Source of the DNA: Burkholderiales bacterium 39-55-53
GTDB lineage: Bacteria > Pseudomonadota > Gammaproteobacteria > Burkholderiales > Burkholderiaceae_C
Assembly (NCBI GenBank): GCA_002282445.1
Contig: NCJK01000002.1
Location: forward strand, 310,001-374,000
Reading direction: 5' to 3'
DNA length: 64,000 bases
A model generated the notes under the pieces. It saw only the letters and a list, made by a program, of their open reading frames with translations. It did not search any database and had not been told where the DNA came from. Each line of letters opens with the position of its first letter. The first letter of the stretch is position 1. The position numbers and the translations under genes are program-made. Shown piece by piece: positions 11,620-55,312 of this stretch.

Positions 11620-11621
11620 TG

Positions 11622-31273: not shown

Positions 31274-31846
31274 ATGGCACAAGCAAAAACACTCACAGCA
31301 ACTGATATTGAACAGCTGCTCAACTACATCAATACACGCAAGTACGCTGCGCGTAACCGCACAATGATGTTGCTCACGCACTGGGCAGGTTTACGCATTG
31401 GCGAAGTTGCTTGTTTACGCTGGAGCGATGTAACAAACAGCGACGGTAAAGTGAAAGATGAGATTCGTTTGCTGCCCGACATGACTAAGGGCCGTCATGC
31501 ACGTACTGTGTTCGTAAGCTCAAAGCTCAAAACAGAGTTGCAAGCCTACGCTGATCAGGCAAAGTGCGTTGAGCGCAGCTATCCATTCTTTGCAAGCCAA
31601 AAAAGTGTTAAAGCTGGGTTTAGCGCAAACAGCTTGTCACAAACGTTTGCCCTGCTTTACGAAGGTGCGGGGCTTGAAGGCGCTAGTAGCCACAGCGGAC
31701 GCAGAACATTCCTCACAAACCTTGCCAACAAAGGTACAGCTATTCACTTGCTCAAAACGCTTGCAGGGCACCGCAGCATCCAAACTACTGCCACTTACCT
31801 GTACAGCAGCCCCAGCCAATTACGCGAAGTTGTCGAACTTGCATAA
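31274..31846 (+). CDS. Short tyrosine recombinase, copy 2
   Basis: The 190-residue recombinase contains R41, H140-x-x-R143, H166 and Y175, as in copy 1, and differs at eight positions (for example Y98C and A185E). A TAGGAGA ribosome site precedes the ATG. Both copies appear intact. Its gene follows the right candidate core site. Confidence 0.9.
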   Translation: MAQAKTLTATDIEQLLNYINTRKYAARNRTMMLLTHWAGLRIGEVACLRWSDVTNSDGKVKDEIRLLPDMTKGRHARTVFVSSKLKTELQAYADQAKCVERSYPFFASQKSVKAGFSANSLSQTFALLYEGAGLEGASSHSGRRTFLTNLANKGTAIHLLKTLAGHRSIQTTATYLYSSPSQLREVVELA

Positions 31847-32116: not shown

Positions 32117-33157
32117 CTATTTTTCAAGAGTCAACTCAGGATGATCTTCTAAAACTCTTTGCGCAATCGCATCCGGGTCTTCAGCCACTTCACTGTACGA
32201 GCCCAATTCATCTCTCATAGCATTGACAGTAGCCATCACGACCGCACGAGGAACTTTTTGAATTTCGTAATACTCTCGTTGGCTCTCATCATCAAATACA
32301 TCAAGAAGATTTTGATAGATGGTGTACTCTTCCCATGCTCTGGCGTCTAGACGAGCCTTGCTTGAGTGTTCAGAAATTTCCTGCTCTGCATCGCCAACGG
32401 TTAAATCATCATCAAACGGGATTGACCAGTATTTAAGATACTCTTTATGCGAATCCTGTGCTGGCAGTTTTTTCGCAAATGCATCAAACTCAGATTTCTT
32501 TGCCTTCAATCCGACAATTTGAAGTTGAATCTCAAGGTAGTCATTAGTTCCGCGATAGGCCCGTACTAGACGGCCGTAGACAGCTTCTAAACACTTTGTC
32601 TTGACAATCTGTAGCGCAGCATCCTTTGGCAAATACCCCAAGAAATACTCTCCAGAATCCCCTAAGCCAATAACTTTTATGGCATTCGCATCTTGAGGGT
32701 TGTCCAGCTCATGTTCTAGGTGCAATGTCTGATTTAGATCATCAATAAACGCTATTGCTGCCTCACGCCGATGACCCAAACCTTTCACCCCCATGTTTTG
32801 AAGAAATATTTGGTATCCCTTTCTGATCGGAGGAAGAAACATGCTGGACTTATATGCGCCACGACGATCACCCTTTTCACGCAACTTAGTTGCTTCATTT
32901 TTCTTATGATTTTCAGCTGCCTGTCTTTGATGCGGAACTTCTGCTGCTTCTGTCTGAGGTGAAAGATTTTTCTCAGAAACAATTTTTTCAGGCGGCTCTG
33001 TACATTTTGCTGAAACCTTGAACTCTGGATTCGGCGTGTTCAATCTGTCTTTTTCTAAGTCTGAATGCTTAGCAGCTTCTACCTGGTGACTCTTCTTTCT
33101 ACCGAAAAAGACCAGTAAGGCCAATCCAACTGCAGCAATAGCAAGAAAGTACATCAT
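32117..33157 (-). CDS. HIRAN-domain protein with N-terminal membrane anchor
   Basis: The 346-residue protein has a membrane helix at residues 2-19 (MYFLAIAAVGLALLVFFG) followed by a charged linker (about 20-105). A HIRAN domain follows, approximately 117-215: MGVKGLGHRREAAIAFI, LHLEHELDNPQDANAIKVIGLGDSGEYFLGYLPKDAALQI. HIRAN domains recognise DNA ends or lesions, or occur in DNA-repair and mobile-element proteins. A membrane-tethered version is unusual. The C-terminal helical part has no recognised domain. A TAGGAA site precedes the ATG. It lies just outside the defence-like locus, together with the small gene at 33199. Confidence 0.75.
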   Translation of the reverse strand: MMYFLAIAAVGLALLVFFGRKKSHQVEAAKHSDLEKDRLNTPNPEFKVSAKCTEPPEKIVSEKNLSPQTEAAEVPHQRQAAENHKKNEATKLREKGDRRGAYKSSMFLPPIRKGYQIFLQNMGVKGLGHRREAAIAFIDDLNQTLHLEHELDNPQDANAIKVIGLGDSGEYFLGYLPKDAALQIVKTKCLEAVYGRLVRAYRGTNDYLEIQLQIVGLKAKKSEFDAFAKKLPAQDSHKEYLKYWSIPFDDDLTVGDAEQEISEHSSKARLDARAWEEYTIYQNLLDVFDDESQREYYEIQKVPRAVVMATVNAMRDELGSYSEVAEDPDAIAQRVLEDHPELTLEK

Positions 33158-33498: not shown

Positions 33499-33597
33499 GT
33501 TCGACTCCTTTGCAATCTAATTTTCAATAATGATGCCAAGCCCGCAGTATCAATGCCGTTGCCGAAGACTGAAGCAGCTGTAACAGAATAGCCCCTC

Positions 33598-33687
33598 AAG
33601 CGACAAATTATGTCGTTTTTAGAATATTTCTAGTAAACTGATCTTTACGATCAACCCAACCTCCACAAGCGACGCAAATTGTCGCTT
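33598..33687 (+). promoter_or_regulatory. Two inverted-repeat operators before the WYL regulator
   Basis: Site 2 is AAGCGAC (33667-33673) and GTCGCTT (33681-33687), perfect arms with a 7-base spacer. Site 1 is AAGCGACA (33598-33605) with TGTCGTTT (33611-33618), one mismatch. They lie upstream of the WYL gene start at 33710, with an AT-rich possible promoter between them. WYL-type defence regulators (BrxR, CapW) bind such repeats and repress their own operons; the same is inferred here. Confidence 0.6.
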
Positions 33688-33709
33688 AGATACTTACATT
33701 AGAGGGTAA

Positions 33710-34786
33710 ATGAACGACACCCTTATGCGCCAGTGGGCAATGATGCGTCTAATCCCAAGATACCCTCGCCGCATTGATACCCCTACCATACACAGCCATT
33801 TAATTGGTCAGGGGATGGCTGTGTCGCTCCGCACGGTACAACGTGACTTGAACAGCTTAGCCACATCATTTCCGCTGGACTTTGATGAGTCAAAGCCTCA
33901 AGGATGGTGTTGGCAGGAAGGTGCTAGCCAGCTCGAGATACCAAGCATGGATGCTCATGCAGCACTGACTTTCAATTTGGTGGAGCAGTACATGCAAAAT
34001 ATGCTGCCACGATCCACTTTGAACCAAATGGCCCCCTGGTTCAACGCCGCCGAGGGCGTAGCGAACTCACAGGTATCTTCCGTCAGCAAATGGCGCGACA
34101 AGCTCCGCGTGATTCCACACACCCTAAATAAGGTTCCTGCACCAATTGACCCCGTGATTCAGGCAACCATTTACAGTGGTTTGTTGAATGAGATGCAAAT
34201 CCAGGTGACTTATCGAGCTATCAGCTCAGGCGCAGAACCCAAAACCTACCCAGTCCATCCACTAGGGTTGGTCGTAATGGAGCAAGTTGTCTATTTAGTT
34301 TGCACCGTCAAGGAATACCAAGATGCAAGGTTCTTGGCACTGCACAGAATTGACAAAGCTGATCTGATCCAAGTGCCAGTTGTTCGACCAACTGCATTTG
34401 ATATTGACGAGTTCATCCTGAGCGAGTTTGGAATACGCTTAGGCAATGAACTCCTCAGCCTAGTTCTTCGCGTACGTGGCTTACTGACGAAATATTTAGC
34501 TGAAACTCCGCTTTCAACCTGTCAACTCATGACCCCGATTAACGATGAATGGACAAGAGTTGAAGTGTCTATTCAGGACACCGTTCAGCTGCGAAATTGG
34601 ATTCGATCTCTTGGTCCTGATGCGATCATCGAACAACCTAAATTCCTCCAAGAAGAGTTCCAGCGGGAATATGAAATATTGCTATCACAATACAACAATC
34701 TCAATGTTTTAATTAATGTAGGGGAACGACCATCGAACTCCTCCAGCAACATCTTGTTTTCCTCTATTCCGAGTAAGCGTCAATGA
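33710..34786 (+). CDS. WYL-domain transcription regulator of the defence-like operon
   Basis: The 358-residue regulator has an N-terminal winged helix-turn-helix (residues about 10-60; TIHSHLIGQGMAVSLRTVQRDLNSLATSFPL) and a WYL-type domain (about 150-230; QVTYRAISSGAEPKTYPVHPLGLVVMEQVVYLVCTVKEYQDARFLALHRIDKADL). The C-terminal extension follows the WCX pattern. Homologues called BrxR or CapW repress phage-defence operons and respond to a nucleic-acid ligand. The gene overlaps the helicase gene by 4 bp, and operator-like repeats precede it. Confidence 0.88.
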   Translation: MNDTLMRQWAMMRLIPRYPRRIDTPTIHSHLIGQGMAVSLRTVQRDLNSLATSFPLDFDESKPQGWCWQEGASQLEIPSMDAHAALTFNLVEQYMQNMLPRSTLNQMAPWFNAAEGVANSQVSSVSKWRDKLRVIPHTLNKVPAPIDPVIQATIYSGLLNEMQIQVTYRAISSGAEPKTYPVHPLGLVVMEQVVYLVCTVKEYQDARFLALHRIDKADLIQVPVVRPTAFDIDEFILSEFGIRLGNELLSLVLRVRGLLTKYLAETPLSTCQLMTPINDEWTRVEVSIQDTVQLRNWIRSLGPDAIIEQPKFLQEEFQREYEILLSQYNNLNVLINVGERPSNSSSNILFSSIPSKRQ

Positions 34787-36393
34787 AATTCGTAGATCTA
34801 CTGTCTAGGGCGGATACCGCACTCTCCGATTTGATGCCTGAAGGAACGCTGAGCATTGTTACGGCCATCGATTCGAAACTCGCCTATCCGAAGAATTTAA
34901 TAAAAGTTCTGCTGCAACTAAGGCCTGCAGATGTTCTACTAGACGATGCAGCAACTAGAAATCAACTGCTGCTTATGCTCTCTCCCAAGGAGGCTAAAGA
35001 CTTGGCGTCTGTTTTAAATTGGGACCAAAAAGGCGATGTCTACGCCTTTTTGGAAAAAAACAAATTCAAACGAGCCCCAGATAGAAAAGCCCTTTTCGAT
35101 TTCTTCAATGTCGAAGTTCCGGTGGCAGAAGTTAAGGAATTGGCTCCAACGACTGTAGACGTTTCCCCTGTTTTTCCACTTTTCCCACATCAAGCAAGAG
35201 CGCTCAGAAAAGTAGAAAGCTACCTAACACAAGAGCCCAGGCGAGCGCTGCTGCATATGCCTACGGGATCAGGTAAAACAAGAACAGCTATGAATGTGGT
35301 AGCTAACTATCTGCGAGAGAGAGACTCGGGTGTTGTTGTTTGGCTTGCTCACTCAGAAGAGCTATGTGAACAAGCATGGGATGAATTTAGAAAAGCTTGG
35401 GGCGCACTTGGGATTCGCAATGTTCCCCTCATTCGATACTGGGGTCCTTACGAGGAAGACCTTCGCAACGTAAAAGACGGAGTGATCATTGCAGGTTTGA
35501 AGAAAGCCTACTCCAGACTACTCAATGACGATGGACAATTCAGAGCGCTTAGTACAAGAGATCCACTCGTAGTGATGGATGAAGCACATCAAGCAATCGC
35601 ACCTACGTACCAACTAATCATTGATCAATTGTTGCGCCCTTTGTCTAAGGCTCAACTGTTGGGTTTGTCAGCCACACCTGGAAGGACTTGGAATGATCCA
35701 GACGCAGACAAAAAATTATCGACTTTTTTTGCCACTCGTAAAGTAACGCTAAAGGTCGATGGTTACGACAACCCAGTTTCGTATTTAATTAGCAACGGAT
35801 ATTTGGCTGAGCCGAAATTTGAGCAGATTGAGGTTGCTTCTAGTTTTGCACTTACCCAAGATGAGCAAGATCGAATTCGGGAAACATTTGAGCTGCCCTC
35901 CTCCGTTTTAGATCGATTGGGTGATGATGATCAGCGCAACTTGTTAATCGTTCATCATGCTGAACAGCTTCTGAAGCGACACAAGCGAGTAATCTTGTTT
36001 GCTGCCTCTGTTAAACAAAGTGATTTGTTGTCGGCTGTTTTGTCGGCGCGGGGCTATTGGGCGGCAAGCATTACATCAAAGTCGCCCAACGGGCGTTCTG
36101 AATCAATCGCTGCTTTTAAGGATGATGAAGATCGTCCGAAAATATTGTGCAATTTTGGTGTGCTGACGACTGGCTTTGATGCGCCACGTACTAGCGCCGC
36201 CCTTATTGCGCGCCCAACTCTTTCGCTTGTGCTTTACAGCCAGATGGTTGGTCGTGCTATGAGAGGTAAGGTTGCAGGTGGCAATGAAACGTGTGAAATT
36301 CTGACGGTGGTTGATACATCGCTGCCAGGTTTTGATTCTGTGGTTGATGCCTTCTCGAATTGGGAAGATGTTTGGAGTAATAACGATGAGTAA
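34783..36393 (+). CDS. DEAD/DEAH-box superfamily-2 helicase
   Basis: The 536-residue helicase shows motif I MPTGSGKTRTAM, motif II VVMDEAHQ, motif III LGLSATPGR, then LCNFGVLTTGFDAPRTSAALIARP (motif V region) and YSQMVGRAMRG (motif VI). Residues 1-125 are a separate N-terminal region of unknown fold, and the RecA-like domains run from about 140 to 520. It resembles the UvrB/RecG-like COG1061 helicases found in restriction and defence systems. It is translationally coupled to the WYL gene and overlaps the GHKL gene by 8 bp. DNA unwinding or translocation during target processing is inferred. Confidence 0.9.
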   Translation: MKFVDLLSRADTALSDLMPEGTLSIVTAIDSKLAYPKNLIKVLLQLRPADVLLDDAATRNQLLLMLSPKEAKDLASVLNWDQKGDVYAFLEKNKFKRAPDRKALFDFFNVEVPVAEVKELAPTTVDVSPVFPLFPHQARALRKVESYLTQEPRRALLHMPTGSGKTRTAMNVVANYLRERDSGVVVWLAHSEELCEQAWDEFRKAWGALGIRNVPLIRYWGPYEEDLRNVKDGVIIAGLKKAYSRLLNDDGQFRALSTRDPLVVMDEAHQAIAPTYQLIIDQLLRPLSKAQLLGLSATPGRTWNDPDADKKLSTFFATRKVTLKVDGYDNPVSYLISNGYLAEPKFEQIEVASSFALTQDEQDRIRETFELPSSVLDRLGDDDQRNLLIVHHAEQLLKRHKRVILFAASVKQSDLLSAVLSARGYWAASITSKSPNGRSESIAAFKDDEDRPKILCNFGVLTTGFDAPRTSAALIARPTLSLVLYSQMVGRAMRGKVAGGNETCEILTVVDTSLPGFDSVVDAFSNWEDVWSNNDE

Positions 36394-38197
36394 GGTAGAG
36401 ATCGTTCCTGCGCGGTTGGCTGTTAAGGCCATGAGGGACAACGGTTATAAAAACGCAGCATACGCAATTGCTGAACTGATGGATAACTCCATTCAAGCAG
36501 GTGCGAATAAGGTTGAGTTGCTGTGTGTTCAAAAAACAGATTTTGTTGAGCAGCGCTCTCGCCAGCGCATTGATCGAATTGCTGTTTTGGATAACGGGCG
36601 TGGTATGACCAAAGATGTCCTCCGCATGGCGCTCCAATTTGGAAATGGCACCAACTTAGATCCTGAAAATCAAACCCATATGGGCAAGTTTGGTATGGGT
36701 TTGCCTGCATCGTCGGTTTCCCAGGCTAGAAGGGTTGATGTTTGGTCTTGGCAGAAGGGCTTGAAGTCTGCCATGCATACATACCTAGATATCCAAGAAA
36801 TCGAGCAGGGTTCTTTGGATCAGGTTCCAGAGCCTGTACTCACCGAGATTCCAAAAGAATGGTTGGGTTGGAGTAAAGAGTTTGGCGATTCGGGAACGCT
36901 GGTGGTTTGGTCTCAGATCGACCGCTGTATTTGGCGAACTGGTCGAGCAATTATTGAAAACTCCGAGCAGCTTATCGGTCGTATGTATCGCAAGTTCTTG
37001 GAGAACGACAACGTCAAAATTCGACTTGCATGTATCGAAAGCGAGAGCCTCACATATTCAATCGACCAATTTGCTCGACCAAACGATCCTTTGTATTTAA
37101 TGGTTGGCACGTCTACCCCTTCGCCATACGACAAGGAGGCAATGTTTGAGCCTTATCCAGATGCTGGCTCATATGACGCGAAGCTTCCAATTAAGCTGGG
37201 TGATCAAACGCACTACGTACACGTTCGATGCAGTATGGCAAAGAAATCTGCGCGTGAGGGGGGTACGGCAGGTAATCGAGATTACGGTCTTCACGCTAAG
37301 AAGAACGTTGGCGTTTCTGTGGTGCGTGCTGGGCGTGAATTGGAATTGGACCCTTCATGGGCGTCAACTACTGATGCGAGAAATCGTTGGTGGGGTGTGG
37401 AGGTTGAGTTCCCTCCAGCATTAGACGAAGTGTTCGGCGTTACAAACAATAAACAAAGCGCTCGAAACTTCGCTGAGATTGCGAATCTGAGTTATGACGA
37501 TTTGTTGACCGAGGGCAAAACAATTTCAGCCCTCAAGGATGAAATGATTCGGGACGGCGATCCACACGCGTATTTGTTGGATGTTGCCGACTACGTGAGA
37601 AAACAAATCAAACGCATGTTCGATCTTGTCGACCAGCAGCTAAAAAATCAAAGAAGTCGTGAAACAAGGCATGACACGACTGCTCACGATGCTGAAAAAG
37701 AGGCCACAGAAAAAACGCGTGAGCGGCAGGCCGCTGGCAAGCGTGGCGAGAGTGATGCGGGTGAAAGCAAGCCTGTTGAAGAACGAAAAACTGATATTGC
37801 TACCAGTCTGACAGAGCAAGGTCTGAGTGAGGATGATGCAAAAGAAATTGCTGAGTCGGCTGTCAATGATTCATTGAAATATGTCTTCGCCGAAGCAAGC
37901 ATCGATAGTCCCGCATTCTTCTCTGTCCAGCCACGCGGCGGGGCACTGATCATCACTTTGAATACCCGCCACCCTGCATATTCGCGCCTTGTTGACGTTC
38001 TTGAGCGCGACAAGAAAGATCAGAGCACACAAAGCCTGGAAGAGCGATTGAATAACGCACTTAACGGCTTGAAGTTGTTGCTGATGGCGTGGGCTCGTTA
38101 TGAAGATGAGCAAGATTCGGCTCGTCGGGAAGACGCGCAGGATGCGCGCGTTGATTGGGGTCGAATTGCTCGGCGCTTCTTGGACCGTAACGAATAA
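36386..38197 (+). CDS. GHKL (Hsp90/MutL/MORC-type) ATPase
   Basis: The 603-residue product starts at the ATG at 36386 (MSKVEIVPARLAVKAM). It has an N-terminal GHKL ATP-binding domain with the N-box AELMDNSIQAGA (E30, D33, N34), G1 box VLDNGRGM (D69-G73) and G2 box MGKFGMGLP (99-107). The rest (about 190-450) may be a transducer-like region. A highly charged linker (ATEKTRERQAAGKRGE) and a helical C-terminus follow. No histidine-kinase phosphoacceptor domain is present, so it is not a sensor kinase. MORC/MutL-like clamping or ATP-dependent dimerisation on DNA is inferred. It sits between the helicase and PLD genes in one operon. Confidence 0.85.
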   Translation: MSKVEIVPARLAVKAMRDNGYKNAAYAIAELMDNSIQAGANKVELLCVQKTDFVEQRSRQRIDRIAVLDNGRGMTKDVLRMALQFGNGTNLDPENQTHMGKFGMGLPASSVSQARRVDVWSWQKGLKSAMHTYLDIQEIEQGSLDQVPEPVLTEIPKEWLGWSKEFGDSGTLVVWSQIDRCIWRTGRAIIENSEQLIGRMYRKFLENDNVKIRLACIESESLTYSIDQFARPNDPLYLMVGTSTPSPYDKEAMFEPYPDAGSYDAKLPIKLGDQTHYVHVRCSMAKKSAREGGTAGNRDYGLHAKKNVGVSVVRAGRELELDPSWASTTDARNRWWGVEVEFPPALDEVFGVTNNKQSARNFAEIANLSYDDLLTEGKTISALKDEMIRDGDPHAYLLDVADYVRKQIKRMFDLVDQQLKNQRSRETRHDTTAHDAEKEATEKTRERQAAGKRGESDAGESKPVEERKTDIATSLTEQGLSEDDAKEIAESAVNDSLKYVFAEASIDSPAFFSVQPRGGALIITLNTRHPAYSRLVDVLERDKKDQSTQSLEERLNNALNGLKLLLMAWARYEDEQDSARREDAQDARVDWGRIARRFLDRNE

Positions 38198-38203
38198 GCA
38201 GAC

Positions 38204-39178
38204 ATGGCCCGATACGACGAAGGCGAGCGACCTTCAGACTTCCCTTTCTCTGGCCAATTGATAGATGGCAGGGCAGCGGCTGACTGGTTGCTTTCTAAGG
38301 CTAGTGCGGCTCCTTCGGGGGTCTCACTTTGCTCCGCTTTTTTGAGATCTGAGGCAATGCGCGCGTTGTACTCTGGCGACCAAGTGGTTTACCAAGGGCG
38401 AATACTTGCGCGTTGGCGATTGGGAGATTTGCTAAGCGGCGCCTCAGACTTGGATGCGTATCCAATGGCTAAGCGGTTGGGCTTTTCATTTTTCGTGAGG
38501 CAAGATTTTCACGGCAAGGTGTTTTCTGTTCCTGGTAGCGGCATCGTTGTTGGCAGTGCAAACGCAACACTTTCTGGTTTTGGCCTGAAGGATTCTGCAA
38601 ATTCTGAGGTCTGCACCTTGGTTCCAGACTCTCGCGAAAATCAGTCTCTTTTGAACGAAATATTCGAGGGTTCAATTGAAATGACCGATGCCATTTTTGA
38701 GGAGATGTCGGCGGTAGTTCGAGAGGCTGAGATGAGTCAAGACTTAAAGCAGGAGTGGCCAAGCGAATTGATGGACAAACTGCAAGCCCCTGAATTTTCT
38801 GGCCGACTTCTCTTTTCAGAGTGTCTGGTTTCAATTCCTGAGATTGATGCGAGCGGAAATGTTGTCTGTCTGGACGACCGCGACTTGCATCTGCTTGGCG
38901 TCTCTGCGCGTGGTTTAGATTCCAGCACTTTAGAGCGAGCCTTCAAGGGAACACGGATATTCCGATGGTTGGTCCATGCACTCAAGGCGTCTGAAGGGGA
39001 AATGTACTTTGGCGCATTGACTGAGCGCCTGCATAACACGTTGCTAGATGATCCTGTTGTGTACCGTCGAGATGTGAAGACCGTTCTTCAGACGCTGCTC
39101 CAGTGGTGTCAATTGCTTGAGGCAGCGGGGGTGATCGTAGATCGCCCCAATCACTCGCAGCGCGTCAGACTGTCTTGA
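38204..39178 (+). CDS. Phospholipase-D-like protein, candidate nuclease
   Basis: The 324-residue protein carries one PLD-type active-site segment: H103-G-K105 (FHGKVFSVP) followed by GSAN at 117-120 (VVGSANATLSGFG). This matches the HxK...GSxN pattern, without a readable second copy. Single-motif members act as homodimeric nucleases (Nuc, BfiI type). The acidic residue usually following HxK is not evident, so activity may be altered. It starts 6 bases after the GHKL stop, and its stop abuts the convergent PAPS-reductase-like gene. A DNA-cleaving effector of the operon is inferred. Confidence 0.78.
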   Translation: MARYDEGERPSDFPFSGQLIDGRAAADWLLSKASAAPSGVSLCSAFLRSEAMRALYSGDQVVYQGRILARWRLGDLLSGASDLDAYPMAKRLGFSFFVRQDFHGKVFSVPGSGIVVGSANATLSGFGLKDSANSEVCTLVPDSRENQSLLNEIFEGSIEMTDAIFEEMSAVVREAEMSQDLKQEWPSELMDKLQAPEFSGRLLFSECLVSIPEIDASGNVVCLDDRDLHLLGVSARGLDSSTLERAFKGTRIFRWLVHALKASEGEMYFGALTERLHNTLLDDPVVYRRDVKTVLQTLLQWCQLLEAAGVIVDRPNHSQRVRLS

Positions 39179-40021
39179 TTACTTGTGACAGACTAGGCAA
39201 GCTCCGCCGCCTTCGTCTTCAAGATACAAGTCATCAAGATCAAGGTTCTCGGATGAGCAAACCCGTAGTGGATTGATTCTTCTGTTGGCAAGCTCGCGCT
39301 GCTTTCTGGCCTCAAAGTCTCGCTTGATTTGTTCCATACGCTCGGGTTTTTCCAGCTCGGCCAGTGGTTCGTTTTGCGACCATGTGAATCTTGTCCCGTT
39401 GTCTATGGCGGTCTTCTCCATATTTTTTGCATTCTCAAATGCTTCGGGGTGGCGCTCTTTGAGGCGAACCCACTCGATCTTTTGTTGAAAGAAGCAGAAG
39501 GTGCATCCGCTGCGAGATCGCCAGTCGTAGTATTTTGGTAGGCCAAGCCCTGAGGCTTCCAGGATGTCCAAAACGTCTTCTTTATTCAGTCCGTTCTCGC
39601 GGAATGGCAACTTAACCTTCAGGTTTTTGTGGTGCGACTGCATGCCATCGCGGTGCTCTTCGTCTGCTCTGATGGCGACGTAGGACACAACTTCGTCACC
39701 CTTGTTGAGCCACTCGTTTACCCACGCCTTAAATGGTTGCAGCTTCAGTTTGATCGTGCACCAGCGTGTCTGGGGGGACGGCAAGAAATTCCCGTTGTGC
39801 CTTAGCCAAAACTTGAAATCACGGTCGGGGTTGAGATAGTTAATTTTTCGGCCAAGCAGCCCTTCAAGCTTGCCCAGAAATTCATAGACCTCTGGCAGCT
39901 CTTCGCCAGTGTCGGTGAAGAAATACTGAATGTCTAATTCGGGAAAGTTTTCCCGCATGTAAATTGCCAAGGCGGCGCTGTCTTTGCCGCCAGAAAGGCC
40001 AAGGACGTGATGTGTAGTCAT
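39179..40021 (-). CDS. PAPS-reductase-family / DndC-like sulfurtransferase
   Basis: The 280-residue protein has the PP-loop ATP-pyrophosphatase motif LSGGKDSAAL (9-18) and FTDTGEELPEVYEF. Cysteines occur in SGCTFCFF, in a single Cys in RVCSSENLD, and in the terminal CLVCHK. Members adenylate or sulfurate substrates; DndC and SspD are the DNA-phosphorothioation members with an iron-sulfur cluster. The length is shorter than DndC. It overlaps the ATPase gene by 4 bp and is the last gene of the minus-strand operon. A role in DNA modification is inferred from family and partners. A plain PAPS reductase is less likely without sulfate-assimilation genes nearby. Confidence 0.8.
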   Translation of the reverse strand: MTTHHVLGLSGGKDSAALAIYMRENFPELDIQYFFTDTGEELPEVYEFLGKLEGLLGRKINYLNPDRDFKFWLRHNGNFLPSPQTRWCTIKLKLQPFKAWVNEWLNKGDEVVSYVAIRADEEHRDGMQSHHKNLKVKLPFRENGLNKEDVLDILEASGLGLPKYYDWRSRSGCTFCFFQQKIEWVRLKERHPEAFENAKNMEKTAIDNGTRFTWSQNEPLAELEKPERMEQIKRDFEARKQRELANRRINPLRVCSSENLDLDDLYLEDEGGGACLVCHK

Positions 40022-43000
40022 GAATTCACCTCGTCTTTTTGGGCTACTTTGATCCCGATATCTGCGAGGGTCGCGTAGATAAGTCGGGGGTCAATTTTTT
40101 CAAGGATTGGGAGAATTTGAATAACCGTGGCGTCAATCTTCGACTGGTCTGTCTTCGAGACTTCGATGGTTCTGCTCAAGTCGTTTCCTTGACCAGCAGA
40201 CAGCACAAGGTTGAACACCTTGCGGGCCGAATCACGACCGCGAAGTCCCGCAAGCGCTTCGGCTTTGCGGAAGTCCATCGACAGTGTGCCAAGTTGAATG
40301 ATGGCTGCATCAAGGTCTCTATCAACCCAGCTGTGAGATGGTTTGTTTATCGCATTGCTGATCAACGATTCAATAGAGGCGTCTGAGCCGTCAAACTCTT
40401 CTAACCTCGTAGCGAAGGATTCGAGCTGGAAGTTTCCAGTGATGCCTTTGACTGACTTTGCACGTTCGCGCAGATCGTCAACCGACCCGCCGCCATGCTG
40501 AAGGGAGTCAAGAACAATCTTTCTGATCTCATTCAACTTTGTTGGGTATGCGCCTTGCAGTTCATCAATTACAGAGCTGAGCTTGTTAACAAGTTCCGAT
40601 TCCGAAGTGGAGCCGAGAATTGTTGGGAGGTCGGCAAAGAGAACTTTATTTGGGTCGCTTGCCTTGAGAAGCATTGCGCGAACTTCTTGGGCAGAATCGG
40701 AAACCGCGTTGGTTCGCTTCGTCCAGTTGGGGAGATTCACAACAGTAGAAACAAGGCCGCGAGCAGTGTCGAGAGGTGAAATCGATGAGATGTCGGTGCC
40801 AACAAGATGCTGAGCGAGTACCTTTTGTGCAATGGCTTTGGCTAGGCTGCTCTTGTTTTCACCAGCTGAGACATATTTGAACTTGATCAGCTTGGGATCG
40901 TTCAACAACTCGTCAATGATTACTTCATTGATGTTGGGCGTGAATACATTGTCGAAATAAATGGCGATGTGTGCCTTGTTTGCCAGGAAAAAAGCAAGGG
41001 CAAGGATGGGCATCACTCCTCGTTTCAAACCATAGGGCGCGCTTTGCCAAAGGGCATAAATTTCGTCTAAGCCAAGTTTGTCCTCGGCATTTTTGAAGAT
41101 TTCATCGGTGTGATACCACAGCTCCAAATAAGTTGAGCCTGTTTCTCCGTCATCCTTCGGTTTTCCAAATCCCCAGCCTAGGCGTCCACGATTCATGTGT
41201 AAGCCAGGGGTGTTGAGAACTGTGTAGTAGAGGCCTGCGTCTGCGGGGTAGCCTTCATACCCCAGCTTCGACAGTCCTCCTTCTTTGAGCATCCGATACA
41301 TCAGCTCTCGTCGTGCTTTGACGATATTGCTGGAGAGTTCATCGCGGTTGATCAGCTCGCTGTTAATGATCGGTGTGCTGTGATAAATTTTTTCGGCAAC
41401 AGAAGAAGCAATTCCAGATACGGTGACGTTCTTCTCGTCGTTCAGCGTCTGCCCGTGACGGAACCAAGTCGCGGAACGAAAAGCGTCTGTCAATTCGTCT
41501 TGTAGTGCGCCACGCAGACTGGAGATTCTTGAGGTGAGTTCACGGCGAGCAACTGAATCACCTTCGAGTTCTGTTCGAGTTGTGAATACGCGCTCTGCGG
41601 CTGAGAGTTCGTGAGAAAGATCGGCAACTCGCTTGCCGTTTTTCGCTACGCCCAAAATGATTGGGGTATCGGTGTTTTCTTGGGAGATTTGCTGGATCGT
41701 TGAGAAAAACTGTTTGTCGGCAATTGGGGAGTCGGGCGCGCAAAGGACAAATGTGCCCACACTTCCAGTGGTGGGTTTGTAGTTTGCAATGAATGATGGC
41801 AGCTCAGCCAAGGGGACGATGGTTTTGCCAAACCAGCGCATTGTTCCCGTCTCGTGATAGAGACGTTTTGCGATCACAGGGTTGAGGTCTGTGAGTTCCG
41901 AGATCAGTTTGCCATTGAAAGCTGAAATTTCATTTCTGGTGCTGCTGATTGCTCCCTCGATGTCGAAGTCGCTACCTGCGAATACACCATACGCATTCAG
42001 GTGTTTGCGTTCAATCAGTATCTTCCATTCAACTAGCTCGGCGAGCGCTCGCTTGATGGCCTTTTTGTCTGAACCTTGTACGCAGGAAAGAATCGTTTCT
42101 TCATCGGGTGCCAACGCGGCACCGCTACGAAACATTTCGATTAACGCAACGGTTTTAGCGATCTCTCCATAAATGGACTGGCCCTTTGCTTCGGCGCGTT
42201 CGACTGAGTCAACGGCTTGTGCCCAACGATGGCCGTCAGGTGAAGCCAAGATGGCGGGCTCCGAGTTTGCGCGCAAATAGTCCCAATAGTGGGCTGGGCG
42301 ATACATTGAATCACCAGCAGCTTTGTGCGTTTGCAGGAATTCTGCAAAGCCGAGTGGCTCACGCGAGGCGAGAAATCCGAAGATGCTGCGCTCGTTTTGT
42401 CCAAACTTTCGTCTTGAGATTGGGCCGAGGAGTGAGGTGATTGCTGGGTGAAGCGGCCAGCACGCTAAAAGGCTTTCTGCTAAGTTTTTGGGGGCGGCTG
42501 GTCGACGTGTTTTGATATTGTTTGCAATGACGGAGCAGTCGTTGCGTGCATCAGAAATGTCTACGCTCTTGGCTCTACTGATCGATTGGCCAATGAGTTC
42601 GATGACTTCGTCGGATGCTGCAACAAGTGGGATGTCGATATAGCGCCCTTGAATCTTTGCCCAATCGTCGCGCGTTTGTCTTCCTAGCGAGGTGGCGTAG
42701 GCTTCGAAGGGTTGATGCAGGATTCCGACGACGACAAATTTGCCATTCGTTCGGCTGGCGGCTTCTGCGAGTTGTTGAAAGAAGTAGATATCTTCGGTGT
42801 TGTCGATTGCAGCGTGTTCTAAAAACTTGCCAAGTTCATCAATGATCAGCAGAAGTCCTTGTTTGTTGCTTTCGGCAAGCGTGACCAATTCGGCGATAAC
42901 GTCAGTGTTCTTCTTTTTGCCGAGTACAACGCCAGTTCTTTTTTCGATGGCGGCAATCAGCTGATCGCGCACGCTTGTGCGTTTCCCCACAACTGGCAAG

Positions 43001-43353
43001 ACTGTCCAGCCAGAACCCTTTGCTTCGAAGGCTTTGTAAATTGTTGAGTCACTAGGCAGGGCAAGAATCTGTTTAGCACGTTCGCGCAATTTTGGGTTGG
43101 GGCCGACGAGTGAACACAACATCAACGCGAGTGACGATTTGCCTCCGCCGTAGGGGCCTGTCCAGGTGAATGCTCGTTGCTTCGTTTCTTGAAGTTGCTG
43201 TCCCATGCTTTCCAGAAGGGAGCGAGCTGTTCCTTGACATACGTATCCAGAGAGGGCGTCTTCTCTGCCAAAGTCGTCGTCGATTTGAATTGAGCGTAGA
43301 AATTGCCGTGAAATTTCTACGACCGTGTTTAGGGTTTTTTCTTGCTGAGCCAT
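40018..43353 (-). CDS. Large P-loop ATPase of the defence-like operon
   Basis: The 1111-residue protein has Walker A GPYGGGKSSL (66-75), and Walker B with adjacent acidic residues in GLLLIIDELGKFLEHAAI (about 155-172). A sensor-like segment (FVVVGILHQPF) follows. The long C-terminal part (about 350-1111) is unidentified and mostly helical. This layout resembles the large ATPases of BREX (BrxC) and related systems. It follows the DUF4007 gene by two bases and overlaps the PAPS-reductase-like gene by ATGA. It probably acts as an ATP-driven switch or scaffold that couples recognition to modification or restriction. Confidence 0.82.
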   Translation of the reverse strand: MAQQEKTLNTVVEISRQFLRSIQIDDDFGREDALSGYVCQGTARSLLESMGQQLQETKQRAFTWTGPYGGGKSSLALMLCSLVGPNPKLRERAKQILALPSDSTIYKAFEAKGSGWTVLPVVGKRTSVRDQLIAAIEKRTGVVLGKKKNTDVIAELVTLAESNKQGLLLIIDELGKFLEHAAIDNTEDIYFFQQLAEAASRTNGKFVVVGILHQPFEAYATSLGRQTRDDWAKIQGRYIDIPLVAASDEVIELIGQSISRAKSVDISDARNDCSVIANNIKTRRPAAPKNLAESLLACWPLHPAITSLLGPISRRKFGQNERSIFGFLASREPLGFAEFLQTHKAAGDSMYRPAHYWDYLRANSEPAILASPDGHRWAQAVDSVERAEAKGQSIYGEIAKTVALIEMFRSGAALAPDEETILSCVQGSDKKAIKRALAELVEWKILIERKHLNAYGVFAGSDFDIEGAISSTRNEISAFNGKLISELTDLNPVIAKRLYHETGTMRWFGKTIVPLAELPSFIANYKPTTGSVGTFVLCAPDSPIADKQFFSTIQQISQENTDTPIILGVAKNGKRVADLSHELSAAERVFTTRTELEGDSVARRELTSRISSLRGALQDELTDAFRSATWFRHGQTLNDEKNVTVSGIASSVAEKIYHSTPIINSELINRDELSSNIVKARRELMYRMLKEGGLSKLGYEGYPADAGLYYTVLNTPGLHMNRGRLGWGFGKPKDDGETGSTYLELWYHTDEIFKNAEDKLGLDEIYALWQSAPYGLKRGVMPILALAFFLANKAHIAIYFDNVFTPNINEVIIDELLNDPKLIKFKYVSAGENKSSLAKAIAQKVLAQHLVGTDISSISPLDTARGLVSTVVNLPNWTKRTNAVSDSAQEVRAMLLKASDPNKVLFADLPTILGSTSESELVNKLSSVIDELQGAYPTKLNEIRKIVLDSLQHGGGSVDDLRERAKSVKGITGNFQLESFATRLEEFDGSDASIESLISNAINKPSHSWVDRDLDAAIIQLGTLSMDFRKAEALAGLRGRDSARKVFNLVLSAGQGNDLSRTIEVSKTDQSKIDATVIQILPILEKIDPRLIYATLADIGIKVAQKDEVNS

Positions 43354-43355
43354 TT

Positions 43356-44291
43356 TTAGTCTTTGCTGTATGCGATCTTGAGCAGCTTTTCTTTCAGCGC
43401 TTTAATGCTTTTTTCGGTGTTGTTCTTCAGCGTTACTTGTCGAAGGCCTGCCTGTTCGGTCCATTGAATCTGCCCGTTCGTGATTTGCTCTAATGAAACA
43501 AGTCGTTCAGCAATGCCGTTCTCATCGATCTTGAATACGCGACCAGGTGATCCGTAGTCATGTGCCACGCGATCAAAGGCCATCACAGAACCAGAGGCTT
43601 CTAGACGTTCCCAGTAGTCAAGCAAGGCATAGCCAAAGATTCCGTCATGTAGTGACCGCTTAGCTCCACGACGGAACTCGAAGGAGTCTTTTGAGTTGTG
43701 AACAATCAAGCCCAGCTCTCCCAAAAGAGGCTCACTTAAATCTTCAGGAGAGTCGCTATTTGCGCGAGGGACGTAGCTTCGAATGCAGCATTCGACATCT
43801 CTTTTCAGGGTTGCTTGAGAGATCTTCGCCTTGATGTTCTCTAGTTCGCCTGCGAGCGACTTTGCGATGAATTCGCGGTCGAAAACCTGCTGAACAACAT
43901 GATTGAAGAGGTAGTACCACGTTGTCGTTTTATCGGGGGTGCTCGCCAAAAACCAATGCATCAACCACACGGTCGAGATGTTTTCGCAATAAGGGTCAAG
44001 CCCATGAAACTCGTTGAATAAAGTGTCTGCGACTGATGTTGCCTTGTATGAGTCATTGCTCTCTTCGAGTACGTTGCAAGCAAAGGCCCAAAAACGGATA
44101 GAGCTAACCATGTTTTTGCCAACCCCGAAATCGACAATCGCTTCTTCATCGGCAAATATGTGCTTAGGTGCTTCACCGAAGTAAGGGCGGTTTTCTACGG
44201 CATCGAAAGCCTTTTTAAGCCATAGTTGTCGCAGGGGAAAAGTCTCATGACCTGAGAATTGAGGTTTCTTGCCGAGGATCGAATCGTTCAT
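43356..44291 (-). CDS. DUF4007-family protein
   Basis: The 311-residue product starts at the ATG at 44291 (MNDSILGKKPQFSGHETFPLRQLWLKKAF). Hallmarks of DUF4007 are the FSGHETFPLRQLWLKKA opening, the segment AIVDFGVGKNMVSSIRFWA and the later LGELGLIV. DUF4007 genes are frequently found in defence islands with PAPS-reductase-family and ATPase genes, which is the arrangement here. It is the first gene of the minus-strand operon. A DNA-binding or specificity role is inferred; its biochemical function is unknown to me. Confidence 0.83.
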   Translation of the reverse strand: MNDSILGKKPQFSGHETFPLRQLWLKKAFDAVENRPYFGEAPKHIFADEEAIVDFGVGKNMVSSIRFWAFACNVLEESNDSYKATSVADTLFNEFHGLDPYCENISTVWLMHWFLASTPDKTTTWYYLFNHVVQQVFDREFIAKSLAGELENIKAKISQATLKRDVECCIRSYVPRANSDSPEDLSEPLLGELGLIVHNSKDSFEFRRGAKRSLHDGIFGYALLDYWERLEASGSVMAFDRVAHDYGSPGRVFKIDENGIAERLVSLEQITNGQIQWTEQAGLRQVTLKNNTEKSIKALKEKLLKIAYSKD

Positions 44292-44533
44292 TCGACAATG
44301 ATACCGCCTCAAACTGGAGAGGTTCACCAGTTCGTTATCTTTTCAAAAATACTGTTGTTTTATACATACTTAATAAGCTAAACAATGACTTCATAAAACT
44401 TAATTAACTATTAAATAAAATCAATATGCGATAAAGTTATATCGATTAAATTTATGAAGCCTAAATTGATCTTCAAATGCAGCAAAGATGTACCAGCTTT
44501 CATAAACCCCTACTTCAGCACTTCCACTGAAAG

Positions 44534-45414: not shown

Positions 45415-46119
45415 TTACACAACAGGGACTTCTGACCAATCTGTCGTGTAGTTGGGTGACTTACGCTCCTGACGCATACCCCACTCTTTTCGCATTCCGC
45501 CTGTGCTGACCTTAACTGTCCCGCGCCCGAAGCGAGAGTTCAACCCATCTATTGCCTTCATTAACCGGTTGCCTCCGTTTGCTTGCGGCTCAAGCAAATC
45601 ACCTTGGACCATTGAAATCGGTGAGATATCGCCCAGCATGATTCCTGCTTTTTTGTAGTTGTAGCCATCGCGCCATAGCAGCCCAGCTACATGCTGCACC
45701 CATCGGTTGATAACCAGGCTGTCATTTGTGGGTTGAGGCAATGGAACCGCCATGCATGGGTTGTACTGGGGTTGTTCCGGCTTGAATCGATTAGTCTGGA
45801 GAAACACCTGTAATAACGCTGCTTGGCCATTTTGCGCTCTCAGTTTCGCCGTTCCGTTGGCCACGAATACGCTAAGTGCATCCTGAATTACCGCAAGCTC
45901 CGTGACCGGCTTACCAAACGAGCGACTATTTACGATTTGCTGCTTATCAGGCACATGCTCTTCAAGAGCGATACATGAGATCTCCTGCAACTCTCTTTGC
46001 GTCTTCTCCATCACTACGCCGAATTCAGAGCGCAAAGTTGGTGCGTGCGCTGTACGCAGTTCTTGAACGGTTTGAATCCCATGCAACGCTAATCGCTTAG
46101 TTATTTTTCTGCCAACGCC
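45415..46119 (-). pseudogene. umuC: umuC 3' fragment (C-terminal part of Y-family DNA polymerase)
   Basis: The reading frame up to 46176 encodes the UmuC C-terminal region (GVGRKITKRLALHGIQTVQEL, then the little-finger domain to TTDWSEVPVV). Its first native residues correspond to W-GVGRK at 46120-46122. The rest of the frame upstream belongs to the inserted transposon. Joining it to the 5' fragment (58117-58674) across one copy of the CCAAA duplication restores one frame of about 420 residues, the normal UmuC size. The polymerase is therefore inactivated by insertion. Confidence 0.9.
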
Positions 46120-46124
46120 CCAAA
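46120..46124 (+). repeat. Target-site duplication, left (CCAAA)
   Basis: CCAAA here and at 58117-58121 directly flank the inverted termini of the inserted element. The pentamer corresponds to GTT-TGG codons of umuC. Confidence 0.85.
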
Positions 46125-46143
46125 TGCGTATTCCAGAACCTAT

Positions 46144-46241
46144 TGACCATCCGCTCCAATCCCTCGTGACCATCACTTCCAGTCAAAGCTGACCACTCAG
46201 TCCAGCAAGTTGACCAAAGAAAAAGTATGGCGATTTGACCA
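46144..46241 (+). repeat. Left-end IS21-type subterminal repeats
   Basis: TGACCA recurs at 46144, 46167, 46190, 46211 and 46236, spaced 21-25 bases. Most are preceded about 8 bases earlier by TCCAG or TCCAA. These look like repeated transposase-binding sites. Confidence 0.6.
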
Positions 46242-46285
46242 GGATAGTAGTCAGACTGACATGGTCAATCTGACTACTCAGACTA

Positions 46286-47038
46286 TCAGCTGGATTGCAT
46301 TTTTTTTCGAGCCATTGTTTTTCGCATGGACTCCCCCTTCAGGGATAACCGATGCGATTGATGCACCACGCGATCCAATATCGCATCAGCCAGCGTGGGA
46401 TCAGGAAAAAACCCATGCCATTGATCGGTTGGGTACTGCGTTGTGATGAGCAATGAGCCTGTGCGCATTCGACGATCAATCACATCTAACAAGAACTGCG
46501 ACGCATGTTGATTCATCTCACCCAAACCCAGATCGTCAAGTATCAACAAACTTGGTTTGCTCAATGACAGCTTCAGAGCGGGCAATGAGCCATCAAGCAA
46601 TGACTCTGTGATTGATCCGTAAAGATCACTGGCGCGATAGAAAAGGACTGGCATTTTCAGCCTGCACGCCTGCTGGCCAAATGCACACGCAAGCCACGTC
46701 TTACCAACACCCGTAGCGCCTTGGATGATCAAATTTTGCTGACGCCTTATCCAATCACAGCTTGCCAAAGATGCCAACTGTGCCTTGTCTAGTCCACGGT
46801 TTACCTTGTATTCAACATCCTCAAATGAAGCCAATTCAGGCATCCCTGCGCCTCGGATCAAACGCTTCAACTTTCGGGCCTCACGCTCGGATGCCTCGTG
46901 ATCAACAAGCATTGCAAAGCGATCATCAAAACTGACATCATGCAATTTGGGTTGCTGAAGCTGCATGTCGTAAGCATCGGCCATTGGAACGAGCTTGAGC
47001 TCTCGAAGGCGAGTGATGGTTTGTTGCGTGCTGCTCAT
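46286..47038 (-). CDS. istB: IS21-family helper ATPase IstB
   Basis: The 250-residue AAA+ protein aids transposition by stimulating IstA. It has Walker A GATGVGKTWLACAF, Walker B LLILDDLG and sensor LITTQYPTDQWHGFFPDPTLADAILDRVVHQ. Length is typical. Its start overlaps istA by 4 bp, as in all IS21-family elements. It lies about 160 bases from the left end of the transposon. Confidence 0.96.
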   Translation of the reverse strand: MSSTQQTITRLRELKLVPMADAYDMQLQQPKLHDVSFDDRFAMLVDHEASEREARKLKRLIRGAGMPELASFEDVEYKVNRGLDKAQLASLASCDWIRRQQNLIIQGATGVGKTWLACAFGQQACRLKMPVLFYRASDLYGSITESLLDGSLPALKLSLSKPSLLILDDLGLGEMNQHASQFLLDVIDRRMRTGSLLITTQYPTDQWHGFFPDPTLADAILDRVVHQSHRLSLKGESMRKTMARKKMQSS

Positions 47039-55159: not shown

Positions 55160-55234
55160 GGTTTCCTCAATGTGATCGGTAACATAGACAGGGGGAATTA
55201 TTAAAATACCAAGTCGTCAGCACGATGTCGAAAA

Positions 55235-55252: not shown

Positions 55253-55312
55253 TCGCCATCGCAATAAATGGAAGTCGTCATACTCAGGTCTGCCAAAGAG
55301 GGTCAGTTGCCA

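What the first reader, a model, noticed from the sequence alone, without database searches (positions are those of the whole stretch)
33598..44291. Candidate two-operon defence system: WYL, helicase, GHKL ATPase, PLD facing DUF4007, giant ATPase and DndC-like protein
Seen: two tightly coupled operons converge, with their stops abutting at 39178/39179. One has a helicase, a MORC/MutL-type ATPase and a PLD-type nuclease under a WYL regulator; the other has DUF4007, a 1111-residue P-loop ATPase and a PAPS-reductase-family protein. Known: WYL regulators control phage-defence operons, DndC/SspD-type proteins sulfur-modify DNA, and PLD and helicase proteins restrict DNA. Inference: the minus operon may be the modification or sensing arm and the plus operon the restriction arm. 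It lacks DndB/D/E, cysteine desulfurase and PglZ, so it is neither canonical Dnd, Ssp nor BREX.
Basis: partly seen in the sequence, partly recalled or inferred. Interest (0 to 1): 0.87.

Follow-up and report, generated by a model that had tools for sequence, protein, structure and literature searches.

The report
Sulfur-DNA defence with MORC-like effector
The seven genes are a probable virus-defence system in which one set of genes marks the cell's own DNA with sulfur and a second, apparently undescribed set (a helicase, a MutL/MORC-like ATPase and a nuclease) acts on DNA according to that mark; it matters because the same pairing recurs in many bacterial phyla and may be one of the unknown partners of the Ssp sulfur-marking genes.

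Summary
In detail: seven intact genes form two convergent operons (33710-44291). The reading needs one correction. The minus operon is not outside Ssp: it is SspB-SspC-SspD, the phosphorothioation (PT) module (PADLOC); IscS elsewhere in the genome is the likely sulfur donor. The plus operon shows no SspE, SspF, SspG, SspH or DndFGH hit; it is an SF2 helicase (HEL), a MORC/MutL-like GHKL ATPase and a single-HKD nuclease (PLD) under a WYL regulator. This trio follows SspBCD across phyla: 68 of 80 GHKL loci hold an Ssp gene, and 6 of 6 genomes with full-length GHKL among 398 Pseudomonadota have SspC within 8 kb. The two modules have conflicting trees, so they were re-paired repeatedly. I read it as a third effector class of Ssp, about as frequent in my small census as SspFGH (7 and 6 of 19). 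Ten paper searches did not find it described; Wang et al. 2021 left most SspBCD loci without a known partner. Whether PT blocks or activates the trio is untested; blocking is my choice. New variant of a known kind; interest 0.62.

The parts
33597..33709 (+). Upstream region of the effector operon with two inverted repeats, GCGACAAATTATGTCG (33600-33615) and AAGCGACGCAAATTGTCGCTT (33667-33687): candidate WYL operators
   Evidence: The pattern GCGACN{4,8}GTCG has three matches in the window, all here, but chance gives 1.86 per window (31 of 100 shuffles reach 3), so the count is weak. Each repeat differs by one base in L019. Function is inference.
33710..34786 (+). WYL-domain transcriptional regulator (358 aa); accessory, not core
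   Evidence: Pfam WYL 1.3e-10, WCX 7.3e-08; present in 3 of 80 related loci
34783..36393 (+). HEL: SF2 helicase/translocase with ResIII-type core (536 aa)
   Evidence: Pfam ResIII 2.6e-25; PADLOC PbeA 7.7e-22, residues 129-495 only; Walker A residues 66 of 71 and DEAH 71 of 71 sequences
36386..38197 (+). GHKL: MORC/MutL-like ATPase (603 aa)
   Evidence: HATPase_c_3 5.9e-21; profile hits MORC2 at 9.4e-08 in PDB sequences; model pLDDT 84.6, pTM 0.64; Foldseek SMCHD1 5.8e-12, Hsp90 5.8e-12, MutL 1.8e-11, MORC2 1.9e-11, TM-scores 0.36-0.39 by query length
38204..39178 (+). PLD: single-HKD phospholipase-D-fold nuclease (324 aa)
   Evidence: H103, K105, S118, N120, N133, E135 in 59 of 59 sequences; model pLDDT 89.4; Foldseek best hit Nuc of Salmonella 5.8e-05, then Zucchini and NucT; PDB profile best hit 7clg 'putative helicase' 2.9e-08
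39179..40021 (-). SspD: PAPS-reductase-like protein of PT modification
   Evidence: PADLOC SspD 2.6e-135; S10, G11, G12, S15 in 57 of 59; C88 58, C173 59, C176 59, C275 58 of 59
40018..43353 (-). SspC: BrxC-like ATPase (1111 aa)
   Evidence: PADLOC SspC E=0, 1298 bits; G69, G71, K72, S73 in 55 and D172, E173 in 56 of 59
43356..44291 (-). SspB: DUF4007 protein
   Evidence: PADLOC SspB 1.8e-111, Pfam DUF4007 1.4e-87; DNA-nicking role of SspB is from PMC8092258

Best explanation
A phosphorothioate-based restriction-modification system. IscS passes sulfur to SspD; SspB and SspC find a short motif and SspB nicks one strand; SspBCD puts a PT on one strand of host DNA (reported for other SspBCD, inferred here). 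The second operon encodes the effector: HEL travels along or opens DNA, the GHKL protein closes as an ATP-driven dimeric clamp, and the PLD nuclease, acting as a dimer, nicks or cuts. DNA bearing PT is spared and PT-free incoming DNA is attacked. The WYL regulator restrains the effector operon from operators before its own gene. Shown: gene content, catalytic motifs, linkage, repeated re-pairing of the two modules. Inferred: PT chemistry in this host, direction of the PT signal, complex formation, WYL control.
For: SspB/C/D identity. GHKL-first loci: of 48 with 8 kb on both sides, HEL 47, SspC 45, SspD 43, SspB 42, PLD 37, any Ssp 46, all six 33. Samples not chosen by linkage: Pseudomonadota, 6 of 6 genomes with full-length GHKL have SspC, while 11 of 398 have SspC at all (without the window 5 of 5, P 3e-9); phylum of G276 (a Nostoc), 9 of 9, while 31 of 156 have an SspC match (without the centre 8 of 8, P 9e-7). 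The 15 Pseudomonadota genomes with only a weaker N-terminal GHKL match have no SspC (0 of 15). Module trees conflict (19 of 30 supported effector splits contradicted, against 3 of 24 and 1 of 33 within modules), so pairings are several. Stacked with known effectors on one locus: SspFGH in L100, SspE in L179, PbeA/PbeC in L089. Cysteine-desulfurase-family gene within 2.5 kb of the module in 44 of 80. GHKL and PLD in one ORF in L053. Direction (weak): 58 of 60 PLD-bearing loci have an Ssp gene in the locus or SspC in the genome, the two others being MAGs; the complete chromosome without SspC (L036) also lacks PLD.
Against: No experiment. Direction: PLD presence against Ssp presence gives Fisher P 0.097. 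20 of 80 loci have no PLD by ORF or tblastn, a few of them at contig ends; 9 of the 20 have an HTH-HNH protein and 4 SspE in the cluster, 7 neither. In 9 Nostocales loci HEL lacks the part with Walker A. Of 15 genomes checked, 5 with the GHKL have no SspC match: L031, L036, L042, L053, L075; three are MAGs. In the class sample only 2 of 9 SspD genomes have the trio. One of four plasmid neighbourhoods opened, the most distant (Nocardiopsis, 27% identity), shows no SspBCD.
Confidence: 0.6

Rival explanations
1. PT-activated (sensing) defence, as SspE: PT on host DNA switches the effector on, and PT-free cells are unharmed by it. Same genes, opposite logic.
For: SspE and PbeABCD are reported to need PT (PMC8092258; PMC6459918 passages), and the trio shares loci with both kinds. 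Genomes with HEL-GHKL but without an SspC match exist (5 of 15 checked), which a PT-activated effector would tolerate.
Against: Three of those five lack PLD (L031, L036, L042), as expected if the nuclease is harmful without PT; translocase plus nuclease recalls PT-spared DndFGH and SspFGH; candidate WYL operators lie only on the effector side. All weak.
Confidence: 0.27
2. Two independent defence modules that merely sit side by side in a defence island.
For: Module trees disagree; order and strand vary: 33 co-directional Ssp first, 19 convergent, 7 divergent, 4 co-directional Ssp last of 63 loci; integrase and IS21 genes lie near the window locus.
Against: Chance neighbours would not give 6 of 6 and 9 of 9 co-occurrence in genome samples. 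Re-pairing with different SspBCD lineages makes each pairing separate evidence of need.
Confidence: 0.06
3. The trio assists PT modification or chromosome maintenance (for example repair of SspB nicks) and is not a restriction arm.
For: MutL-like ATPase, a helicase with RadD likeness (111 bits against a cut-off of 720) and a PLD nuclease could serve repair; SspB is reported to nick DNA (PMC8092258).
Against: 12 of 19 SspBCD loci in the census lack the trio, and 9 of these 12 hold another effector candidate; HNH or SspE nuclease genes occur where PLD is missing.
Confidence: 0.07

Closest known systems
SspABCD-SspFGH (Vibrio anguillarum FF-93; PMC8092258, parts 1-3 of 5)
   Same: SspBCD operon next to a separate three-gene effector operon; IscS may replace SspA
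   Different: SspF (Walker A), SspG and SspH (FtsK-like C-terminus) are other proteins; the window's effector proteins show no SspF/G/H hit (for HEL the best 25 of 34 hits shown), while SspFGH in L100 is found by the same library
SspABCD-SspE
   Same: Same SspBCD; SspE can sit in the same locus as the trio
   Different: SspE is one DUF262/GmrSD-type protein; no SspE hit in the window's seven proteins (same limit)
DndCDEA-PbeABCD (PMC6459918, passages)
   Same: PT-linked effector with SF2 helicase core and PLD domain; HEL's best PADLOC hit is PbeA (7.7e-22)
   Different: PbeA is one PLD-Res-helicase protein and works with SMC-like PbeC; here helicase and PLD are separate genes, the second ATPase is GHKL, and the partner is SspBCD
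MORC/paraMORC restriction-modification neighbourhoods (Iyer et al. 2008, PMC2292703, parts 1-2 of 4 and passages)
   Same: GHKL ATPase with SF2 helicase and nuclease, HKD mentioned; strongest precedent for the effector logic
   Different: The modification genes named in the parts I read are DNA methylases; a text search found no PAPS, phosphorothio or DndC
Type 4 BREX (PMC12839542, passages)
   Same: Homologues of SspB, SspC and SspD
   Different: PglZ is in all and BrxL in 96% of its taxa there; no PglZ or BrxL hit here
VcSduA, Shedu with GHKL domain (PMC12137116, passages)
   Same: Tested case of a GHKL ATPase that is needed together with a nuclease for phage defence
   Different: One protein with a PD-(D/E)XK nuclease; no PT partner mentioned in the passages seen

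Membership tests
Ssp phosphorothioation module (SspBCD) | SspB, SspC, SspD in one operon | tested here: met
   PADLOC hits over nearly the full length, adjacent co-directional genes
Ssp phosphorothioation module (SspBCD) | Cysteine desulfurase (SspA beside the operon, or IscS elsewhere) | tested here: met
   None among the seven genes; IscS in the genome (TIGR02006, 723.5 bits, cut-off 643.2) beside IscR-, IscU- and IscA-like ORFs recognised by eye. Use by this SspD not tested
Ssp phosphorothioation module (SspBCD) | PT in DNA at a short motif on one strand | not testable with these tools
   Needs LC-MS/MS or PT sequencing
SspABCD-SspFGH | SspF, SspG, SspH effector genes | tested here: not met
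   No such hit among the seven proteins at E up to 0.1 (HEL best 25 of 34 hits shown); positive control L100
SspABCD-SspE | SspE effector | tested here: not met
   No SspE hit among the seven proteins; the rest of the genome was not scanned for SspE
Dnd (DndBCDE/DndFGH) | DndD, DndE, DndF-H | tested here: not met
   Only weak DndC homology of SspD (1.5e-09)
PbeABCD | PLD-helicase fusion PbeA with SMC-like PbeC | tested here: not met
   HEL matches PbeA only in the helicase core; no PbeC hit shown
BREX type 4 | PglZ and BrxL with BrxC and BrxP | tested here: not met
   No PglZ or BrxL hit shown for the seven proteins; SspC model beats BrxC (0 against 3.9e-103)
MZA | MzaB ATPase with the other Mza proteins | tested here: not met
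   Only residues 34-240 match MzaB; 76 bits against a cut-off of 850; no other Mza hit shown
MORC/paraMORC ATPases | GHKL plus second (S5-type) domain, linked to helicase and nuclease genes | tested here: met
   Model aligns with SMCHD1, MutL and MORC2 ATPase modules over 400-445 columns; helicase in 77 of 80 loci. Subfamily not tested
DISARM | DrmA, DrmB, DrmC and a methylase | tested here: not met
   Only a weak DrmC hit of PLD (3.2e-04)
Mokosh | Its helicase and PLD components (recalled) | not tested
   No Mokosh name among the hits, but I did not check that the library holds its models

The most novel reading that the evidence does not exclude
HEL-GHKL is a portable reader of backbone sulfur built like mismatch repair: a MutL/MORC-type clamp and a helicase read the single-strand PT mark laid by SspBCD, as MutL, UvrD and MutH use hemimethylation, and hand unmarked DNA to an exchangeable nuclease (PLD, HNH or SspE). 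It would be the first MORC/MutL-type system known to me that reads a DNA backbone mark, and a main missing partner of the 'orphan' SspBCD loci.
Probability: 0.2. Interest if true: 0.82.

Novelty: new variant of a known kind. Interest (0 to 1): 0.62.

Why it matters
Wang et al. 2021 reported that 2,211 of 2,678 SspBCD loci had neither SspFGH nor SspE and named undiscovered restriction partners as one of two possible reasons (PMC8092258). In my small census of 19 SspBCD genomes the trio is in 7, SspFGH in 6 and SspE in 2, so the trio may fill part of that gap and makes the question directly testable. It would also put a MORC/MutL-type ATPase, a family of wide interest in eukaryotic chromatin, into a sulfur-marking defence, and it gives a clear case of modification and effector modules being exchanged.

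Tried and rejected
Filing it under SspFGH was my first expectation: rejected after reading PMC8092258 (parts 1-3 of 5) and by PADLOC. BREX type 4, Dnd, Pbe, MZA, DISARM: see the membership test. Searching phage records for the PLD protein gave nothing (the other proteins were not searched there). WYL as core gene: rejected (3 of 80), with the caution that the local WYL model was built from the window and three hits, so other regulators would be missed. Control of both operons by one WYL operator: the looser repeat pattern has a match at 44428-44444 upstream of SspB, but 19 matches occur in the window (chance mean 10.6; 3 of 100 shuffles reach 19) and this one is not kept in L019, so I dropped it. 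Co-inheritance of effector and modification genes: over 56 sequences the distance correlation is 0.90 for GHKL-HEL, but 0.14 for GHKL-SspC (8 of 500 permutations as high) and 0.22 for HEL-SspC (0 of 500 as high, the best reaching 0.215); a slight common signal remains, so I speak of frequent, not complete, exchange. PLD correlates poorly with HEL and GHKL (0.28-0.32, 43 sequences); its low identity may saturate distances, so I claim no PLD exchange from this. Structures of HEL, SspB or a complex were not modelled (both model jobs went to PLD and GHKL). Promoter and terminator scan: not above shuffles.

Limits of counts: the 80 GHKL loci are the best 80 of 106 confirmed, and many are Nostocales. 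One is filed as an archaeon (L091, a MAG). Rows scoring 60 bits or less, or outside 0.6-1.6 times the window length, were dropped before motif counts (left: HEL 71, GHKL 80, PLD 59, SspD 59, SspC 59, SspB 56 sequences, window included). The local models were built from blastp hits of window proteins in the same loci and are not independent of them. Loci counted as having an Ssp gene include weak or distant cases such as L059 (SspC 8e-30, about 8 kb from PLD). 'None' in the effector census means none within the 14-20 kb fetched. The class search listed 163 of 274 genomes at the loose limit for SspD; I took the 9 with E at most 1e-90. Of the 10 GHKL matches in that class sample, two weak ones (G120, G199) are in SspD genomes but on other contigs. 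Of four weaker GHKL matches in the phylum of G276, one (G691) is in a genome with a weak, C-terminal SspC match on another contig. G280 in that sample was already known to me through L051.
Full report
Anatomy. The seven ORFs are intact and arranged as reported; the stop codons of the two operons abut at 39178/39179. Genes within each operon overlap by 4-8 bases or lie 2-6 bases apart. A single 10.8-kb block, window 33597-44372, matches L019, a Burkholderiales MAG, at 79% DNA identity; a 1.4-kb block with the HIRAN-domain gene matches at 90% but lies 85 bases from the cassette in the window and 2.7 kb from it in L019. So the cassette, WYL included, behaves as a unit.

Minus operon. PADLOC names the three proteins SspD (2.6e-135), SspC (0) and SspB (1.8e-111). 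SspD keeps S10, G11, G12 and S15 of its loop in 57 of 59 sequences and C88, C173, C176 and C275 in 58-59; SspC keeps its Walker A in 55 of 59. No cysteine desulfurase is among the seven genes, but a clear IscS stands on contig C1 beside ORFs that I recognise by eye as IscR-, IscU- and IscA-like; IscS served SspBCD in V. anguillarum FF-93 (PMC8092258; I read parts 1-3 of 5). In 44 of 80 related loci a cysteine-desulfurase-family gene lies within 2.5 kb of the module; the one representative tested is SspA by PADLOC.

Plus operon. Its proteins show no SspE, SspF, SspG, SspH or Dnd effector hit (for HEL the best 25 of 34 hits are shown), while the same library finds such genes in related loci. HEL has a ResIII-type SF2 core resembling PbeA and, below the cut-off, RadD. 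The GHKL protein has a MutL/MORC-like ATPase module: MORC2 is the best solved relative by profile (9.4e-08), and the model (pLDDT 84.6) is closest to SMCHD1, Hsp90, MutL and MORC2, with modest TM-scores. PLD has one HKD motif; H103, K105, S118, N120, N133 and E135 are present in 59 of 59 sequences; the model (pLDDT 89.4) is closest to Nuc of Salmonella (5.8e-05). The D of the classical HKD motif is not kept in the window copy (HGKVFSVPGSG) but is in many relatives. One motif per chain suggests a dimer, as in Nuc (recalled).

Linkage, GHKL first. A genome-contig scan with the GHKL alignment A1 gave 80 loci whose record titles point to Pseudomonadota, Cyanobacteria, Bacteroidota, Bacillota, Actinomycetota, Chloroflexota, Acidobacteriota, Gemmatimonadota, Verrucomicrobiota and Armatimonadota (phylum names mine), and one MAG filed as an archaeon (L091). 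In all 80: HEL 77, PLD 60, SspC 64, SspD 61, SspB 57, any Ssp 68, WYL 3. In the 48 with at least 8 kb on both sides: HEL 47, SspC 45, SspD 43, SspB 42, PLD 37, any Ssp 46, all six 33. I then looked for SspC anywhere in the genomes of 15 loci, the 12 without any Ssp gene plus L037, L059 and L060: 10 of 15 have it. The five without are L031, L036, L042, L053 and L075; L031, L053 and L075 are MAGs, L042 a draft, and L036 a complete Microcoleus chromosome with HEL-GHKL but no PLD (plasmids, if any, were not in the record). The other 65 genomes were not searched as wholes.

Linkage in samples not chosen by linkage. Among 398 Pseudomonadota genomes SspC (E at most 1e-20) is in 11 and full-length GHKL (E at most 1e-100) in 6, all 6 among the 11 and within 8 kb on the same contig. 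Leaving out the window: 5 of 5, hypergeometric P 3e-9. The other 15 GHKL matches, weaker and N-terminal only, fall in 0 SspC genomes. Among 156 genomes of the phylum of G276, full-length GHKL is in 9, all with SspC; 8 lie on the same contig within about 13 kb, G280 on another contig; leaving out the centre G276, 8 of 8 against 30 of 155, P 9e-7. In the class sample of 274, 9 genomes have strong SspD and 2 of them (window, G185) the trio. On plasmids the GHKL protein matches 54 records, 20 of them over at least 80% of its length; I opened four. Mesorhizobium L099 has the window's convergent order plus a cysteine desulfurase; Agrobacterium L100 has HEL, GHKL, a 361-aa ORF in the PLD place, SspFGH and SspD at the edge; Treponema L101 has a distant full set; Nocardiopsis L102, 27% identical, has no SspBCD.

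Effector census. I fetched 17 SspBCD stretches and scanned them with local models; with the window and G185 (L017/L018) this makes 19 genomes: trio 7 (window, G185, G318, G620, G295, G339, G510; G295 also has SspE), SspFGH 6 (G657, G370, G498, G120, G242, and G199 with two weak matches at the cut end), SspE alone 1 (G121), PbeA/PbeC-type 1 (G447), another GHKL/histidine-kinase pair 1 (G141), none found 3 (G524, G249, G226). Without the window: trio 6 of 18. By sample: phylum 6 of 11, class 2 of 9. PADLOC was run on L179 (SspE), L185 and L089 (PbeA, PbeC) and L100 (SspF, SspG, SspH) and agrees; the other assignments rest on the local models. So the trio shares a locus with SspFGH (L100), with SspE (L179) and with PbeA/PbeC (L089).

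Exchange of modules. In 63 loci the Ssp operon is co-directional and first in 33, convergent in 19, divergent in 7, co-directional and last in 4. Protein distances agree within modules (HEL-GHKL 0.90; SspB, SspC, SspD 0.80-0.89) but little between them (0.10-0.21 for HEL and GHKL, 43 sequences; HEL-SspC 0.22 over 56 is just above all 500 permutations). In trees of 47 sequences, 19 of 30 supported effector splits are contradicted by supported SspBCD splits, against 3 of 24 for HEL versus GHKL and 1 of 33 for SspC versus SspB+SspD. The pairing therefore arose several times. In L053 GHKL and PLD are in one ORF. Of 20 loci without PLD, 9 have an HTH-HNH protein and 4 SspE in the cluster, 7 neither; in the 9 with HTH-HNH, HEL starts near residue 180-194 and lacks Walker A.

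Mechanism. I take PT-spared restriction as most likely: translocase, clamp ATPase and nuclease look like an active restriction complex, and 58 of 60 PLD-bearing loci have an Ssp gene in the locus or SspC in the genome, against 17 of 20 without PLD. This difference is not significant (Fisher P 0.097), and PT-activated defence remains open (0.27). Two inverted repeats in front of WYL, each with one base changed in L019, are candidate operators; none convincing lies before SspB.

Literature. Ten searches of the open library showed me no description of SspBCD with a helicase-GHKL-PLD effector. Papers seen: PMC8092258 (parts 1-3 of 5), PMC2292703 (parts 1-2 of 4 and passages), PMC10853773 (passages, outline, section 17), PMC12839542 (passages, outline, part 1 of 2 of section 35), PMC6459918, PMC12421847, PMC3506569, PMC8011034, PMC12137116 (passages only); the rest as search listings. 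Most subscription papers, bioRxiv and supplements were not searched, so it may be in print. PMC12421847 notes that in 5,518 of 5,530 A. baumannii Ssp systems sspE was not alongside, while other restriction genes lay in the region; whether these are the trio was not tested.

Noticed in passing
window 45415-48573: IS21-type istB and transposase genes (46286-48573) beside a UmuC-like ORF with only C-terminal domains (45415-46176), which looks like a fragment next to the insertion sequence.
   Followed up: no
window 8721-19171 and 51978-57418: Copper-resistance-type genes flank the island on both sides: multicopper oxidases at 16319-17743 and 51978-53405, a heavy-metal P-type ATPase, an outer-membrane efflux protein and a CusS-type sensor kinase.
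   Followed up: no
window 32117-33157: Protein with a HIRAN match just below the Pfam cut-off, also in L019 at 90% DNA identity but 2.7 kb from the cassette there; weak PDC-M03B hit.
   Followed up: partly
window 60665-62446: KAP-family P-loop NTPase with a PADLOC candidate-defence hit PDC-S49, 3.8e-28.
   Followed up: no
window 31274-31846 and 23041-24426: Phage-integrase domain protein of only 190 aa (4.8e-25) and a second protein with a weak integrase N-terminal match, upstream of the cassette.
   Followed up: no
L024, L026, L029, L030, L032, L034, L038, L040, L043 (Nostocales): HEL homology begins near residue 180-194 of the full-length protein, so Walker A is missing; an HTH-HNH protein occupies the place. 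Possibly one ancestral event.
   Followed up: partly
L022:18175-20763; cluster in 14 of 80 loci and in several census loci: A DNA phosphorothioation-associated putative methyltransferase (representative: TIGR04096, 2.2e-147) is a frequent neighbour of the trio plus SspBCD.
   Followed up: partly
L189:10608-14882 (G141): SspBCD followed by a 785-aa histidine-kinase/GHKL-like protein and a 637-aa protein: perhaps a further effector pair.
   Followed up: no
L021:8597-12540: A second GHKL and helicase pair, diverged from the first, sits between the trio and SspBCD.
   Followed up: no
L101 (Treponema saccharophilum plasmid): Distant trio (28% GHKL) with DUF4007, an SspC-like protein, a cysteine desulfurase and a 543-aa ORF with weak SspD likeness in one run: a diverged form of the same system.
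   Followed up: partly
L182:1857-7229 (G524): A second SspB-like protein (8e-06) and a 1500-aa SspC-like ATPase (7e-21) beside SspBCD.
   Followed up: no
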